Shown: positions 4,907 to 10,184 of the stretch, piece by piece
How positions within the stretch are numbered: position 1 is the stretch's first letter
Layout of the letters: each line of letters opens with the position of its first letter
Origin: Alphaproteobacteria bacterium
Lineage (GTDB): Bacteria > Pseudomonadota > Alphaproteobacteria > UBA2966 > CAIVPW01
Length of the DNA: 64,000 nucleotides
Reading direction: 5' to 3'
Assembly (NCBI GenBank): GCA_947481575.1
Contig: CANKGV010000001.1
Location: 186,001 to 250,000, forward strand
Translations under genes and position numbers: made by a program
Notes under the pieces: model-generated
The model's input: only the letters and a program-made list of their open reading frames with translations
What the model was told of the DNA's origin: nothing
The model's database searches: none

Positions 4907-5031
4907 CGGGGGGCCAGCATCCGGCGCGGCCGGGCTTGTGGCAATCCCGAAGCGCGGGCCTGCTTCCGACCCCTTGAGAACGAGGCCGAGAGCCGCCAAG
5001 GTAGCGGCCCTTGCTGCCACCGGAGCCCCGC

Positions 5032-6066
5032 ATGACCACGCCTGCCGTTACCGACGTTGCCATCATCGGCGCCGGGCCCATTGGCCTGTTTGCCGTGTTT
5101 CAGTGCGGCATGCTGGGCTTTCGCACCCACGTGATCGACGTGCTGGATGCGCCGGGCGGGCAGTGCACGGCGCTGTACCCGGAGAAGCCGATCTATGACA
5201 TTCCCGGCTACCCGGCGATCAGCGGATCGGAACTGATCGACAAGCTGCTGGAACAGGCCGCGCCGTTTGCGCCCACCTTTCACCTGGGTCACCCGGTGCT
5301 GAAGATGGAGCCGCTGGGGCCGGGACCGAACGGCGTGAACCGCGGCTGGCAACTGGAACTGGCAGGCGGCACCAAGATTGCGGCGCGCGCGGTGATCATT
5401 GCCGGCGGCACGGGCGCATTCGGCCCGGTGCGCCTGCCGCTGCCTAACGTGGCGGAGTTCGAAGGCAAGAGTTTGTTCTATCTGGTGCGGCGCAAGTCGG
5501 ACCTGGCGGGCAAGCGCGTCGTGATTGCGGGGGGCGGCGACTCGGCGGTGGACTGGGCGCTGGCGCTGGCCGGGATCGCATCGAAGATCTATGTGGTGCA
5601 CCGCCGCGACAAGTTCCGCGCGGCGCCGGAGAGCGTGCGCAAGATGCACGAACTGGTAACGGCCGGCGTGATCGACATGGTGGTGCCGTATCAGATGTCG
5701 GGCCTGGTGGGCGCGAACGGGCACCTGACGGAAGCCAAGGTCGCGACGCTGGACGGCGCCGAGAAAAGCATCCCCGCCGACGTGGTGCTGGCGTTCTTCG
5801 GCCTAGTGAACAACTTGGGGCCGATCGCCGACTGGGGCCTGACCCTGGACCAGAGCCACATCGTGGTGCGGCCCGATACGTGCGCGACCAACCTGCCCGG
5901 CGTGTTCGCCGCGGGCGACATCGCCACCTATCCCAACAAACTGAAGCTGATCCTGTCGGGCTTTGCCGAAGTGGCCCAGGCGGCCCACGCCATCCACCCG
6001 ATCATCCATCCGGATAAGGCGCTGCACTTCGAGTACTCGACCAGCAAGGGCAAGCCGGGGGCCTAA
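5032..6066 (+). CDS. Ferredoxin--NADP(+) reductase, thioredoxin-reductase type
   Basis: This is a 344-aa flavoprotein of the TrxR-like ferredoxin/flavodoxin-NADP reductase family. It should move electrons between NADPH and ferredoxin. The FAD-binding GAGPIG is at residues 13-18, NADPH-binding GGGDSAVDWAL near 165, and FAAGDIATYP near the C-terminus. The CxxC of true thioredoxin reductases is absent, which supports ferredoxin reductase. The start is ATG 5032; a TTG at 5011 is also in frame. It is transcribed away from tsaE, and its TAA overlaps the stop of the convergent NACHT gene by 3 nt. Confidence 0.9.
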   Translation: MTTPAVTDVAIIGAGPIGLFAVFQCGMLGFRTHVIDVLDAPGGQCTALYPEKPIYDIPGYPAISGSELIDKLLEQAAPFAPTFHLGHPVLKMEPLGPGPNGVNRGWQLELAGGTKIAARAVIIAGGTGAFGPVRLPLPNVAEFEGKSLFYLVRRKSDLAGKRVVIAGGGDSAVDWALALAGIASKIYVVHRRDKFRAAPESVRKMHELVTAGVIDMVVPYQMSGLVGANGHLTEAKVATLDGAEKSIPADVVLAFFGLVNNLGPIADWGLTLDQSHIVVRPDTCATNLPGVFAAGDIATYPNKLKLILSGFAEVAQAAHAIHPIIHPDKALHFEYSTSKGKPGA

Positions 6067-8336
6067 AGGACCTCAACCGCCGCCACAAGCGGATGATTTG
6101 ATTGTTTTGGAGCCTTAAGTATCTCCCAAGCTTCCCCCGCTTTGGCGCGATTTGGAATCCAGACTCTAGGTCCGTTGACCTTATAGGGTCGCGCAAAATG
6201 GTGCTGTTCGACCAAGCGCAGAATGCCGTCAACGTAGGAGCGGGCGCGGTGATCGAAGCCCCGAAAGAACGCACTCTCTCGGCGTCCTGACCCTGACTGC
6301 ACAAAGAGCTTTCTTAGTACTGTCAGTAGAACTCGGCGGCCGAGCGAGATGCTTAGCCCCATAATGTCAGCGTTGGTCTGTGCCTCATTGAGGAAGGCGT
6401 GAACAACGGTGCTCGAATCGAATATCCCGACCGGCAGGTCCCCTGGTCCCTGGGGTCCAACGATACTCTCGACGTCACAATGAACGAAACGAGGACCCCT
6501 GGCATTGTGGCCCTCCACAACGGCCCGCCCAATGAAGCAGGATTCCAGGCAAATACCGGAGAGATCACCACCGTCGACTATCACGACGTCGGAGAACATT
6601 CCGTTTCTCACGTACGCGGGCGTTCCCGTGTAGTCGAGCTGTAGCTCCTGAAAAAGCCCTACTAAATCAATCGAAAGGCCACTCAGCGTTTCCTGCTCTG
6701 TTGATTTCCGCAATGCCGCCGATAGCTTTCCGGCGCTTGAGCCAGTCAGCTTGTGGGCGGCCAATCGACACCCTAAGTCGCCCATCTGGTTGGTGATTTC
6801 AATCTCGGCGATGTGCTCGTCGTGAGGGTGGTCAACAAACCGCACGACGTCCCCGGCGCGGCAGGCATCCACAAAATCCCCATCCACAAACTCTCTCGCA
6901 TCATCCTTGGAAGTGGTCAGCCCGGGGAGCCTTGAGATTAGAATCTCGGACTTCTCGTCGGGCCGCACCTCGAATATCTCCTGAAATACTTCGTCGATGT
7001 CCTTTGCATAGATGGGTCCGCGGCCCGAGGTCGTCGATCTTACGCCGGTTGCGAGACGCTCAATGAATTGTCTCACCTGCTTCGGGTCTACGGACGGATT
7101 GATCTGCTTCGCCTCGCGTTCGCACACGCGATCTAGAAGGAAGTCCCAACCTTCCTCTCGGCCCGCCAAGCTCAGGTCCGAGTGTTGCGTCTTTCCCGCA
7201 AGATACGCCAACAACAACGGCCGAGACGGTATCCAGTCAGGCACATCTATGTCGGAGCGGTTCCTCTTCCGCAGGTACTCTTTGATCTGCTTTATCGTGA
7301 ACTCCTCGACGTGGAGGAGGACATCTTGTTCGTCGAGACCAAGGGCCGCGGTCAACTCACGGTCGCTGTCAAAGTAGTGTTCGCGACCGCTCAGAAGTTT
7401 TGCTGAGTCCTGGGACGTACTCTCAAGGAAGTTGCGGACGAGCTGAACTGCCTGTCGCCGGGCTGCTCTCAACCGCTGTGATTCCCTGACCATTCGCGAC
7501 GATGACACCTCGTCATACCCGTCAAGGAGTACGTGACACAGCCCCGCATTCCATGCCGCTACGAGCTGCGACGGTCCTGAGAAACCGATGCGTGTTCCGT
7601 GACGCATCAGCGCCTCAGCCGGATCGTCCTGCCCAAAATGATCGCGGAGATTGATGTAGATCGGAAACCGCGGGTCAGAATTGGTTACATACGCGTCTTC
7701 CAGCGCGTAGAAGACGCTCCGCATTGTCATACTCTTGCCCGAACCGTAGTCGCCCAAAAGGACAACAGTCCTGCGGGTGTCTGATCGCACAAGATCGGGA
7801 ATGCTTGACCCGTCTACCTCGGTCCGATCTGCGGCATTGATTAGTGCAACTGAGATGTAGTCAGAGCGAGGAACCCGGAAATCCTTTTCGTTGTCAGGAT
7901 TCCGAATCGACCCAAATGGATAGTTGCCGCGGCGTTGCAGGTATTCGCGCGCATCGATGATACGCCCCGCAAAATGCTTGTGGCTCAGCATTTCTACCGG
8001 GCACTTCGCTTTGGCCTTGGCCGACGCTACGAGTGCCACTTGGTCACCCGTCGGATCCTCCCGCGTGACAATCCAAATCTTGAAATTCTTTGTCGGGTCA
8101 GTCTTGCGGCCGTCTCTTACGAGCTCGATGCTTTTTCGAAGATCGCGCTCAACTTTTTCCACCTTTCTTGAAACGGTGGCCTCAACCACGTGAACGACAT
8201 CGCCGGTCTCAAAAACACCGTCACGTTCTCTACCTAGGACTACAGTCGGGTGCGGTGCGACCCGTTGCGGCCATAGAATTCCCGCGATCCGACGAACGTC
8301 GGCCTCAAAGGCAGTTTCTTCTTCTTGTGGACTCAT
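6063..8336 (-). CDS. NACHT-domain NTPase with nuclease-like N-terminus (candidate antiphage protein)
   Basis: The protein is about 757 aa and looks like a bacterial STAND/NACHT NTPase. Walker A, GDYGSGKS, lies near residues 195-202. The Walker B block LLDGYDEV, of the NACHT LLDGxDE type, lies near 270-277. An R-E pair typical of these ATPases follows in LLSGREHYF. The first 130 residues resemble a restriction-endonuclease fold: an ERDGVF turn is followed by the strand VVEATVSRK, so a catalytic E is plausible, but the usual ExK reads EAT. Residues 575-630 show short repeats suggesting a small beta-helix, and the C-terminus has no family I can name. Base composition is clearly less GC-rich than the flanks. 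The start is ATG 8336; TTG 8342 is also possible. An immune role is inferred from bacterial NACHT proteins generally. Confidence 0.82.
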   Translation of the reverse strand: MSPQEEETAFEADVRRIAGILWPQRVAPHPTVVLGRERDGVFETGDVVHVVEATVSRKVEKVERDLRKSIELVRDGRKTDPTKNFKIWIVTREDPTGDQVALVASAKAKAKCPVEMLSHKHFAGRIIDAREYLQRRGNYPFGSIRNPDNEKDFRVPRSDYISVALINAADRTEVDGSSIPDLVRSDTRRTVVLLGDYGSGKSMTMRSVFYALEDAYVTNSDPRFPIYINLRDHFGQDDPAEALMRHGTRIGFSGPSQLVAAWNAGLCHVLLDGYDEVSSSRMVRESQRLRAARRQAVQLVRNFLESTSQDSAKLLSGREHYFDSDRELTAALGLDEQDVLLHVEEFTIKQIKEYLRKRNRSDIDVPDWIPSRPLLLAYLAGKTQHSDLSLAGREEGWDFLLDRVCEREAKQINPSVDPKQVRQFIERLATGVRSTTSGRGPIYAKDIDEVFQEIFEVRPDEKSEILISRLPGLTTSKDDAREFVDGDFVDACRAGDVVRFVDHPHDEHIAEIEITNQMGDLGCRLAAHKLTGSSAGKLSAALRKSTEQETLSGLSIDLVGLFQELQLDYTGTPAYVRNGMFSDVVIVDGGDLSGICLESCFIGRAVVEGHNARGPRFVHCDVESIVGPQGPGDLPVGIFDSSTVVHAFLNEAQTNADIMGLSISLGRRVLLTVLRKLFVQSGSGRRESAFFRGFDHRARSYVDGILRLVEQHHFARPYKVNGPRVWIPNRAKAGEAWEILKAPKQSNHPLVAAVEVL

Positions 8337-8406
8337 CGCCAATCACCACCAGTTCGGCCTGAGTGCAATGATATGGAGCCAGCGTCAATTCGGCGAGTCC
8401 CGTTGA

Positions 8407-8457
8407 ATCCCAGTTGGAATGCGCTCCGATGGCCCTTCCCACTATGATCCCAGCTGG
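8407..8457. repeat. Short imperfect direct repeat beside the PAS-gene truncation point
   Basis: Two 11-bp copies, ATCCCAGTTGG (8407-8417) and ATCCCAGCTGG (8447-8457), differ at one base. The second covers the stop codon region of the truncated PAS gene. They fall where base composition drops toward the NACHT gene. I found no further copy at the other end of the insert near 6060, so an attachment-site reading is unproven. Confidence 0.35.
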
Positions 8458-10184
8458 TGCGGCCCGAGCCGCGTGCCTTCGGTGACGTCGAAGTAGGTGT
8501 AGAGGCTGTTGCCGTCGGGGAGCGGCACGGACGCGAATTCGACGACGCGGCCGTCGGGGCGCTCCAAGCGTTCGACGCGGCCGGTGCGCTCAAGCGTCCG
8601 GGCGACAATGCGGTCGCGCAGCGGGAGCCATTCGCCGGGGGCGTGGGCGAACAGGGCGCGGCAGCGCTCGGCCACATCCGTGACGTGGGGCTGGGTGGCT
8701 AGGAAAGCCTGGTCCAGTTTCCAGATGCGGGCGAAGCCGGGGTTGAACAGCTTCAGACGCCCATCGGCGCCGTACACGGCGACGCCTTCGAACAGGTTGT
8801 CGAGCGTGGCCTTTTGGACCGCTTCCAGCGTGTTGCGCGAGCGCTCCAACTCCAAGCGGCTGCTGATGTCGTCGTAGATGAACACGAGGCCGCCGAAGGG
8901 ATGCGGTGCGGTGGCGACGCGCAGCGTGCGGCCATCGGGCAGATGCAGGTTTTCTTCTTCCGGCGTCAGCACGCTGGAATAGAGGCCGAGCACGGATGCC
9001 TTGTAGGCGCGGAAGTCGGCTTGCTCGGGCAGGCGGCGGGCTTCGCGCAGGGCTTCCAGGATTTCGCCGTGGGTGGGCTTCGCATCCAGCCAATCGCTGT
9101 CCAAGCCCCACAGCTTGGCAAAGGCTTCGTTGGCGAAGCGGGCGCGTTTGTCGGGGCCGAAGATGACGATCGCCGACGGCAACAGATCCATCACCGTTTC
9201 TTGGGCATCGGCGTGGCGGCGCAGTTCGTGCCACGCGTCCTCGCGTTCGGTGACGTCGCGGGCATAACCCGCGGTGGCGCCGGCATCCAGCGGCGCTTCG
9301 GTGATTTCGAACACGCGGCGATCGCCGCCGACATTGAAGCGGCGCTGGTCGGTTTGCGGGCGGCCGGTTTCGCGCGCCAGCGCGGCGAGGGAGCGCGACT
9401 GCTGCGGGCCGGTGCCGGGAACGAATTCGACGCCCTTGGCGACCGCGGTGGCGGGATCGGTTTCGACCGCTTCGCAGTAGGCCTGGTTGACCCACGCGAT
9501 GCCGAGATCGGGATTGCGGCGCCACGTGGGGAACGGAGCAACGTCCAAGATTTCCTGGAGTTGGTCGCGCTGGCGCTCGGCCTCGCGCAGATCGGCTTCC
9601 ACTTGGGACTGGCGGCCGTGGCGGGCGGTGGCGTCGAAGAACCAGATGACGTAGGCGAGCGGGTCGCCCGACTGCCCTTTCACCACCCGGCCGCGCACCA
9701 TGAGGACGCGGCCGTTGCGGGCGCGGACTTCGCCATCGAAGCCGACGCGGTCTTCGCGCAACGTAGCCGCTGCGGTTTCCAGCGACGCGTAGTCATCGGC
9801 CACCAGCAGGTGCGAGAGGTCGCGGAACGAGCGGGTGGAGACTGCCGGTGCGTTGAGCGAAGCGACGAGCGCGGGGGAGTATGTTTCCAGTCCGGAGCCG
9901 GCGGCCCAGGCGAAGTAGCCATCGGGGGCGTGGTCGAGCATGGCGGACAGGCGGCCGACCGCGTCTTGCAGCTCGCCCATGCGGAGCGCGTTGGCCTTGA
10001 GGGCGCGGCGCGCCGAGATGGTCATGGTGAGCCCGAGCACCAGGGCCGCGGCGACGACGATGACGGCGCCGGCGACGATGACGAGCGCCAGCGCCTGCAG
10101 CGACGTGCCGGTGGATTGAGCGAACGCGGGCGCGGGCAGGAGCGCGGCGAGTGCCGCGACTCCTGCTGTGGTGCGCCGCACCAT
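8442..10184 (-). CDS. DivL-like multi-PAS membrane protein, truncated before the kinase core
   Basis: The 580-aa product has an N-terminal signal-like segment, one transmembrane helix around residues 30-56 and four PAS domains, starting near 75, 205, 325 and 455. It follows ahcY on the same strand, 4 nt after its stop. As I recall it, alphaproteobacteria keep a DivL-type PAS histidine kinase between ahcY and tsaE. Such kinases continue from the last PAS domain into HisKA and HATPase domains. Here the frame ends a few residues after FDVTEGTR with an unrelated tail, and no H-box or N/G boxes appear in any frame down to 8337. I read it as the sensor half of a DivL-like kinase cut at the edge of the NACHT gene. 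It could still bind partners, since DivL works partly as a scaffold. Confidence 0.75.
   Translation of the reverse strand: MVRRTTAGVAALAALLPAPAFAQSTGTSLQALALVIVAGAVIVVAAALVLGLTMTISARRALKANALRMGELQDAVGRLSAMLDHAPDGYFAWAAGSGLETYSPALVASLNAPAVSTRSFRDLSHLLVADDYASLETAAATLREDRVGFDGEVRARNGRVLMVRGRVVKGQSGDPLAYVIWFFDATARHGRQSQVEADLREAERQRDQLQEILDVAPFPTWRRNPDLGIAWVNQAYCEAVETDPATAVAKGVEFVPGTGPQQSRSLAALARETGRPQTDQRRFNVGGDRRVFEITEAPLDAGATAGYARDVTEREDAWHELRRHADAQETVMDLLPSAIVIFGPDKRARFANEAFAKLWGLDSDWLDAKPTHGEILEALREARRLPEQADFRAYKASVLGLYSSVLTPEEENLHLPDGRTLRVATAPHPFGGLVFIYDDISSRLELERSRNTLEAVQKATLDNLFEGVAVYGADGRLKLFNPGFARIWKLDQAFLATQPHVTDVAERCRALFAHAPGEWLPLRDRIVARTLERTGRVERLERPDGRVVEFASVPLPDGNSLYTYFDVTEGTRLGPHQLGS

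What the first reader, a model, noticed from the sequence alone, without database searches (positions are those of the whole stretch)
6063..8336. Solitary NACHT NTPase with a nuclease-like N-terminus in otherwise housekeeping DNA
Walker A (GDYGSGKS) and the NACHT-type Walker B block (LLDGYDEV) are seen directly. The first 130 residues have a restriction-endonuclease-like outline (ERDGVF then VVEAT), and the C-terminal third matches no family I can name. The gene is visibly AT-richer than both flanks. Bacterial NACHT proteins are established antiphage proteins, so this is the best candidate here for a little-described defence gene. The EAT in place of ExK raises the question of whether the nuclease domain cuts or only senses.
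Basis: partly seen in the sequence, partly recalled or inferred. Interest (0 to 1): 0.72.

Follow-up and report, generated by a model that had tools for sequence, protein, structure and literature searches.

The report
Acquired NLR-like antiphage nuclease gene
A single foreign-looking bacterial gene encodes a protein built like an animal or plant immune receptor, with a DNA-cutting-type front end and an unusual sensor end, and it belongs to a rare, widely scattered family carried by bacteria, plasmids and phages that probably protects cells against viruses.

Summary
Window 6063-8336 (-) is an intact 757-aa gene with a NACHT domain above Pfam's cut-off. It is the most AT-rich 2.3-kb stretch of the window, and none of 7 same-family genomes has it. 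It sits in a variable spot between two convergent genes, where relatives carry other small genes or nothing.

It belongs to a patchy, unnamed family of about 70 proteins with the same ~750-aa layout, from eight phyla, a plasmid, temperate phage Haddon and other viral contigs. A 59-sequence AlphaFold model (pLDDT 91) shows a restriction-endonuclease-like domain, NACHT, a helical region, a short pentapeptide-like beta-helix and a winged helix. The N-terminus aligns with Mrr nucleases. Motif III lysine is Thr/Ser in 59/59 members, but Lys61 on the next helix is in 58/59. Such lysine migration is documented in PD-(D/E)XK nucleases.

The closest solved folds are NLRC4, NOD2 and phage-sensing Avs4/Avs3. 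Genes beside the homologs are rich in defence genes compared with a random control.

Best explanation: a single-gene bNACHT/Avs-like sentinel that oligomerises on a phage cue and cuts DNA, causing abortive infection. Cutting and the trigger are untested.

The parts
6063..8336 (-). Whole gene: NACHT STAND NTPase, 757 aa (alternative TTG start at 8342)
   Evidence: full-length homologs
7917..8336 (-). Residues 1-140: restriction-endonuclease-like (Mrr-type) N-terminal domain, putative effector
   Evidence: AlphaFold order a-b-b-b-a-b-a-b; hhalign to Mrr_cat prob 88.5, E 2.7e-6; member L073 over Pfam Mrr_cat cut-off
8220..8222 (-). Motif II Asp39 (58/59 members)
8175..8183 (-). Motif III Glu52-Ala-Thr54: Glu in 54/59, Thr/Ser in 59/59 in place of Lys
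8133..8156 (-). Helix after motif III with Lys61 (58/59), Asp65 (55/59), Lys68 (56/59): candidate migrated lysine
   Evidence: precedent in PMC1913061
7263..7772 (-). NACHT domain, residues 189-358
   Evidence: Pfam PF05729 33.5 bits vs 26.7
7731..7754 (-). Walker A GDYGSGKS, residues 195-202
   Evidence: G198, G200, K201, S202 invariant in 59/59
7506..7529 (-). Walker B block LLDGYDEV, residues 270-277
   Evidence: D272, G273, D275, E276 invariant in 59/59
6642..7160 (-). Residues 393-565: helical region with family signature RLPGL...R.FVD
6432..6617 (-). Residues 574-635: short beta-helix, pentapeptide-repeat-like, ~21-residue spacing; putative sensor part
   Evidence: Three strand pairs in the model; C-terminal profile matches pentapeptide protein 2w7z at E 2.2e-4
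6114..6344 (-). Residues 665-741: C-terminal winged-helix-like domain with conserved K.F.Q.G.GR.E.AL.RG
   Evidence: Helix-helix-helix-hairpin in the model; conservation; sequence matches only weak, eS19 winged helix E 0.32
8442..10184 (-). Left context: PAS-domain protein without kinase domain; boundary of the insertion spot, not part of the system
5011..6066 (+). Right context: FAD-dependent reductase (FNR/TrxB-like), convergent, its stop codon overlapping the NACHT stop; not part of the system

Best explanation
The gene encodes a stand-alone, horizontally acquired antiphage sentinel of the bacterial NACHT (bNACHT/Avs-like, NLR-related) kind. The C-terminal beta-helix and winged helix recognise a product of infection, or a host complex changed by it. 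ATP-dependent rearrangement of the NACHT core then drives oligomerisation. This brings the N-terminal Mrr-type nuclease domains together, and they cut DNA, halting phage multiplication at the cost of the infected cell. The active site would use D39, E52 and a lysine supplied by the following helix (K61) instead of the usual ExK lysine. Shown here: domain order, family conservation, absence from relatives, mobile carriage and a defence-rich neighbourhood of homologs. Inferred: oligomerisation, DNA cutting, the trigger and phage protection.
For: NACHT above cut-off. Walker A and B invariant in 59/59. AlphaFold model pLDDT 90.9, pTM 0.82; its best folds are NLRC4 (E 3.5e-11), NOD2, Avs4 with phage portal (4.5e-8) and Avs3 with terminase (1.4e-7). 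N-terminus aligned to Mrr_cat by hhalign at prob 88.5, E 2.7e-6, with E11, D39, E52 and T54 falling on E, D, Q and K of Mrr; seven controls give prob under 1%. Member L073 passes Pfam Mrr_cat (21.8 vs 21.0 bits). D39 58/59, E52 54/59, K61 58/59. Lysine migration to motif IV with Thr in motif III is described for DUF1626 (PMC1913061). bNACHT25/32, with N-terminal PD-(D/E)XK plus NACHT, protect against phage, degrade DNA on infection, and lose both with D48A (PMC12169576). Homologs in phage Haddon (33% over 96%), an Erwinia plasmid and 8 IMG/VR contigs. Homolog neighbours include type ISP R-M, HsdR, DrmC, DpdF and HerA. The 114 neighbour ORFs match 106 PADLOC models at 1e-15 against 1 model for 113 control ORFs. 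GC of the gene is below its flanks at 63 of 63 homolog loci, mean -12 points.
Against: No experiment. The canonical catalytic lysine is missing in every member. A supported clade (L044, L046, L050, L053), and also L054, has Met in place of E52, so cutting cannot be universal by this active site. The fold search was run on the whole model, so its hits rest on the NACHT core and do not test the N-terminus. Direct sequence search of the N-terminal profile found no nuclease in the PDB. The window gene has no defence genes beside it. The PADLOC counts are models, not proteins: one defence protein hits 14-19 models.
Confidence: 0.6

Rival explanations
1. NLR-like antiphage protein whose N-terminal restriction-endonuclease fold no longer cuts: it binds nucleic acid (a sensor or adaptor), and the effect comes from oligomerisation or from a partner.
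For: Motif III lysine is absent in 59/59; five members also lack E52; the conserved helix K61/D65/K68 could be a DNA- or RNA-binding surface.
Against: E11, D39, E52 and K61 are 92-100% conserved, which fits selection on a metal-dependent active site. Lysine migration is a known variation. No conserved partner gene was found at 72 loci.
Confidence: 0.22
2. A phage-borne superinfection-exclusion gene that integrated with a prophage and persisted after the prophage decayed. Its present host role may be weak or absent.
For: Closest clade includes temperate phage Haddon; IMG/VR homologs lie beside tail and UmuC-like genes.
Against: No phage genes, attachment repeats or integrase at the window site. 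Most homologs were found in bacterial genome contigs rather than phage records. This differs from the best explanation mainly in history.
Confidence: 0.1
3. A STAND signalling protein unrelated to phage, such as a transcriptional or stress regulator acting through its winged helix (as SWACOS/MalT-type STAND regulators do).
For: C-terminal winged-helix-like domain; the window copy sits among metabolic genes.
Against: Nuclease-like N-terminus, patchy transfer among phyla, phage and plasmid carriage, defence-rich neighbourhoods of homologs, absence from relatives.
Confidence: 0.06

Closest known systems
bNACHT25 / bNACHT32 (clade 6 bacterial NACHT proteins; PMC12169576)
   Same: Single protein, N-terminal PD-(D/E)XK-type domain, central NACHT, C-terminal sensor region; experimentally antiphage.
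   Different: They carry an NCH1 helical domain and a nuclease whose D48A mutation abolishes defence. Here motif III lacks the lysine, and the C-terminus is a pentapeptide-like beta-helix plus winged helix.
Avs3 / Avs4 (phage terminase and portal sensors)
   Same: STAND core, N-terminal nuclease effector in many members, C-terminal sensor; fold match of the whole model.
   Different: Avs proteins are 1,500-2,000 residues with large repeat sensors; this is 757 residues and no TPR or HEAT array was matched. TM-score normalised to the query is only 0.25-0.31, so the resemblance is in the core.
Mrr-type restriction endonucleases (PF04471)
   Same: Fold and motif layout E-D-E/Q.
   Different: QxK/ExK replaced by ExT/S, candidate lysine in the next helix.
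DUF1626-type PD-(D/E)XK nucleases (PMC1913061)
   Same: Thr in motif III with conserved Lys/Arg in the motif IV helix.
   Different: Known only as a comparison from the paper; no NACHT fusion is mentioned in the passages read, and no sequence comparison was made here.
P4-satellite STAND proteins with Mrr_cat effectors (PMC9122126)
   Same: Effector-STAND-sensor layout, Mrr_cat effector among variants, carried by phage satellites.
   Different: Those have C-terminal repeats such as TPRs; not compared by sequence here.

Membership tests
NACHT STAND NTPases | NACHT profile with Walker A and DGxDE Walker B | tested here: met
   33.5 bits vs 26.7; residues invariant in 59/59
NACHT STAND NTPases | ATP binding and oligomerisation | not testable with these tools
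   Needs biochemistry
bNACHT antiphage proteins | Tripartite effector-NACHT-sensor layout in one bacterial ORF | tested here: met
   AlphaFold model and profiles
bNACHT antiphage proteins | Experimentally shown phage protection | not testable with these tools
   Only indirect: neighbourhoods and mobile carriage
bNACHT clade 6 (bNACHT25/32) | NCH1 helical domain, clade placement in the published NACHT tree | not tested
PD-(D/E)XK / Mrr-like nucleases | abbbab core fold with motif I Glu, motif II Asp, motif III Glu/Gln | tested here: met
   Secondary structure, hhalign, E11/D39/E52 conservation
PD-(D/E)XK / Mrr-like nucleases | Motif III catalytic lysine at its usual position | tested here: not met
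   T54 or S in 59/59
PD-(D/E)XK / Mrr-like nucleases | Substitute lysine from motif IV helix placed at the active site | tested here: inconclusive
Avs (AVAST) systems | Large repeat-built sensor for terminase or portal | tested here: not met
   757 aa, no TPR/HEAT match in Pfam scans; short beta-helix and winged helix instead
Pentapeptide repeat proteins | Right-handed beta-helix of pentapeptide coils | tested here: inconclusive
   Profile match to 2w7z E 2.2e-4, but no Pfam pentapeptide hit and only about three coils
MADS mad8 | PADLOC mad8 model over the whole protein | tested here: not met
   17.9 bits over 133 residues of the ATPase core only

The most novel reading that the evidence does not exclude
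A distinct, undescribed NLR-related defence family. Its effector is a PD-(D/E)XK nuclease with a catalytic lysine moved to the neighbouring helix. Its sensor is a DNA-mimicking pentapeptide beta-helix joined to a winged helix, so that it may detect DNA-bound or DNA-mimicking phage proteins rather than terminase or portal. One sub-clade has lost the catalytic Glu and works without cutting.
Probability: 0.2. Interest if true: 0.68.

Novelty: new variant of a known kind. Interest (0 to 1): 0.52.

Why it matters
Bacterial NLR-related proteins are the presumed source of eukaryotic NACHT immunity, yet for few of them are both effector and trigger known. This family is compact, works as one gene, is carried by temperate phages, and combines an atypical nuclease active site with a small sensor. 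That makes it a tractable test of how little sensor an NLR needs, and of whether the lysine-migrated nuclease is active. It has no name in NCBIfam and no full-length model in PADLOC, so annotation pipelines are likely to miss it.

Tried and rejected
Idea that the insertion truncated the neighbouring PAS histidine kinase: rejected, because the PAS gene also ends after its last PAS domain in G003, G004, G006 and G007. Idea of a two-gene system: no conserved partner among flanking ORFs of 72 homolog loci; shared clusters were common dehydrogenase, ABC, GntR or prophage genes. MADS membership: only a weak ATPase-core match. Single-sequence AlphaFold gave a useless model (pLDDT 34) and was not used. 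Single-sequence search of genome contigs found nothing; the alignment found 71 loci, a few of them only weak NACHT matches. N-terminal profile against the PDB gave only coiled-coil Tektin noise. Winged-helix assignment by sequence is weak and rests on the model. No terminal repeats, integrase or IS at the site; no sigma-70-type promoter match in the 106-bp leader. PADLOC neighbour counts were corrected after seeing that one protein hits 14-19 models.

Full report
Observation. The ORF at window 6063-8336 (-) is intact and 757 residues long. Walker A GDYGSGKS (195-202) and LLDGYDEV (270-277) are present. Pfam NACHT matches residues 189-358 above its cut-off, while NCBIfam has no match and PADLOC gives only a weak mad8 hit on the ATPase core. 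GC is 0.561 against 0.670 for the window, and GC3 is 0.62 against 0.84-0.87 in well-framed neighbours. It is the lowest-GC 2.3-kb stretch in the 64 kb.

Site and history. It is the only copy in its genome. Seven genomes of the same family lack it, and one of 95 relatives carries a full-length homolog (28%). A wider profile search found three hosts besides the window's own genome among 385 class genomes and three among 399 phylum genomes, G056 being counted in both. The gene lies between a PAS-domain gene and a convergent FAD-dependent reductase gene; its TAG stop overlaps the reductase's TAA. In G003, G004 and G006 this spot carries small lipoprotein-like genes plus a different third gene in each; in G007 there is about 460 bp, and in G001 and G009 only 24-48 bp. 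The spot is therefore a gene-turnover site, and the gene was most likely gained there. No repeats, integrase or transposase mark the ends.

Family. An alignment of the window protein with a Pseudomonas phage protein (Haddon CDS0030, 33% over 96%), an Erwinia plasmid protein and one alphaproteobacterial-class relative retrieved 71 loci from genome contigs and 13 from viral contigs, of which about 70 are full-length or near full-length relatives. They come from Pseudomonadota, Actinomycetota, Bacteroidota, Bacillota, Myxococcota, Planctomycetota, Chloroflexota and Acidobacteriota. The tree mixes phyla. The window protein groups with gammaproteobacterial bins and phage Haddon at moderate support, 93/92. 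Some copies are frame-broken or truncated, typical of genes under variable selection. At 63 of 63 loci the gene has lower GC than its flanks, on average by 12 points.

Anatomy. With 59 sequences AlphaFold gives pLDDT 90.9 and pTM 0.82. The order is: helix and mixed strands typical of restriction endonucleases (1-118), NACHT core, helical region (393-565), three beta-strand pairs at about 21-residue spacing (574-626), then a winged-helix-like end (665-741). The whole-model fold search returns NLRC4, NOD2, NLRP9, Avs4 with phage portal and Avs3 with terminase. These hits rest on the core; they do not test the ends.

Is the N-terminus a nuclease? Profile-profile alignment with about 20 Mrr_cat domains gives probability 88.5% and E 2.7e-6 over 105 columns. 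E11, D39, E52 and T54 fall on the Glu, Asp, Gln and Lys of Mrr. Five column shuffles, a reversed profile and the C-terminal profile stay below 1%. Member L073 passes Pfam's Mrr_cat cut-off on its own. Conservation is E11 58/58, D39 58/59, E52 54/59, K61 58/59, D65 55/59, K68 56/59, while the motif III lysine is Thr or Ser in every member. Knizewski and colleagues describe just this change in DUF1626 (Thr in motif III, lysine moved to the motif IV helix) and related moves in DUF506 and DUF790 (PMC1913061). L044, L046, L050, L053 and L054 have Met at position 52, so at least those may have lost cutting.

Sensor end. The C-terminal profile matches a pentapeptide-repeat protein (2w7z, E 2.2e-4), and the model shows a short beta-helix there. 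The last 90 residues carry the family signature K.F.Q.G.GR.E.AL.RG in a winged-helix order; sequence matches are weak. Pentapeptide proteins have been suggested to inhibit DNA-binding proteins (PMC7159879), and are known as DNA mimics (established knowledge), so a DNA-related cue is possible, but this is inference.

Defence association. Immediate neighbours of homologs include a type ISP restriction enzyme (L025), HsdR (L055), DrmC of DISARM (L028), DpdF (L058) and HerA (L066), while others sit beside housekeeping genes such as gyrA, uvrA or glyA, as in the window. Among 114 neighbour ORFs 106 PADLOC models match at 1e-15, against one model among 113 ORFs from random stretches of other genomes. 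One protein can hit 14-19 models, so this stands for perhaps ten proteins (an estimate), still a clear excess. In phage Haddon the gene sits alone in the accessory region between a DNA methyltransferase/excisionase block and the lysis genes.

Mechanism. By analogy with bNACHT25/32, where an N-terminal PD-(D/E)XK domain degrades DNA on infection and D48A abolishes defence (PMC12169576), the protein most likely senses infection through its C-terminus, oligomerises through NACHT, and cuts DNA. Shown: architecture, conservation, distribution and context. Inferred: trigger, oligomerisation, cutting and protection.

Standing. It works like a bNACHT/Avs protein, and it is a NACHT STAND protein by every feature that could be tested. 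It is not a standard PD-(D/E)XK nuclease at the lysine, and it is not an Avs by size or sensor. The published bNACHT clade tree could not be consulted, so the family may correspond to an already numbered clade; hence 'new variant of a known kind' with moderate interest.

Noticed in passing
G000:C30:10462-10965 (L179), outside the window: A second open frame (418 aa) in the same genome scores above the Pfam NACHT cut-off (31.7 bits); whether it is a NACHT or another AAA-type ATPase was not examined.
   Followed up: no
window 6063-8442 and L121, L122, L123, L125: The spot between the PAS gene and the convergent reductase gene holds different genes in each relative (lipoprotein-like genes plus a variable third gene), so it behaves as a small gene-turnover site.
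   Followed up: partly
window 8442-10184: PAS-domain protein without histidine kinase domains, also ending after the last PAS domain in four family relatives, while G001 has an 839-codon open frame version that continues beyond the PAS domains.
   Followed up: partly
L044, L046, L050, L053, L054: Members with Met in place of the nuclease motif III Glu; L044, L046, L050 and L053 form one supported clade. Possible natural loss of cutting, useful as a comparison.
   Followed up: partly
L026, L048, L061, L071, L083, L086: Copies of the family that are frame-broken or truncated in their genomes, as expected for a defence gene under on-off selection.
   Followed up: no
L014, L015, L016: Viral-contig homologs lie next to UmuC-like and UmuD-like genes beside tail genes, suggesting a phage accessory region shared by related prophages.
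   Followed up: no
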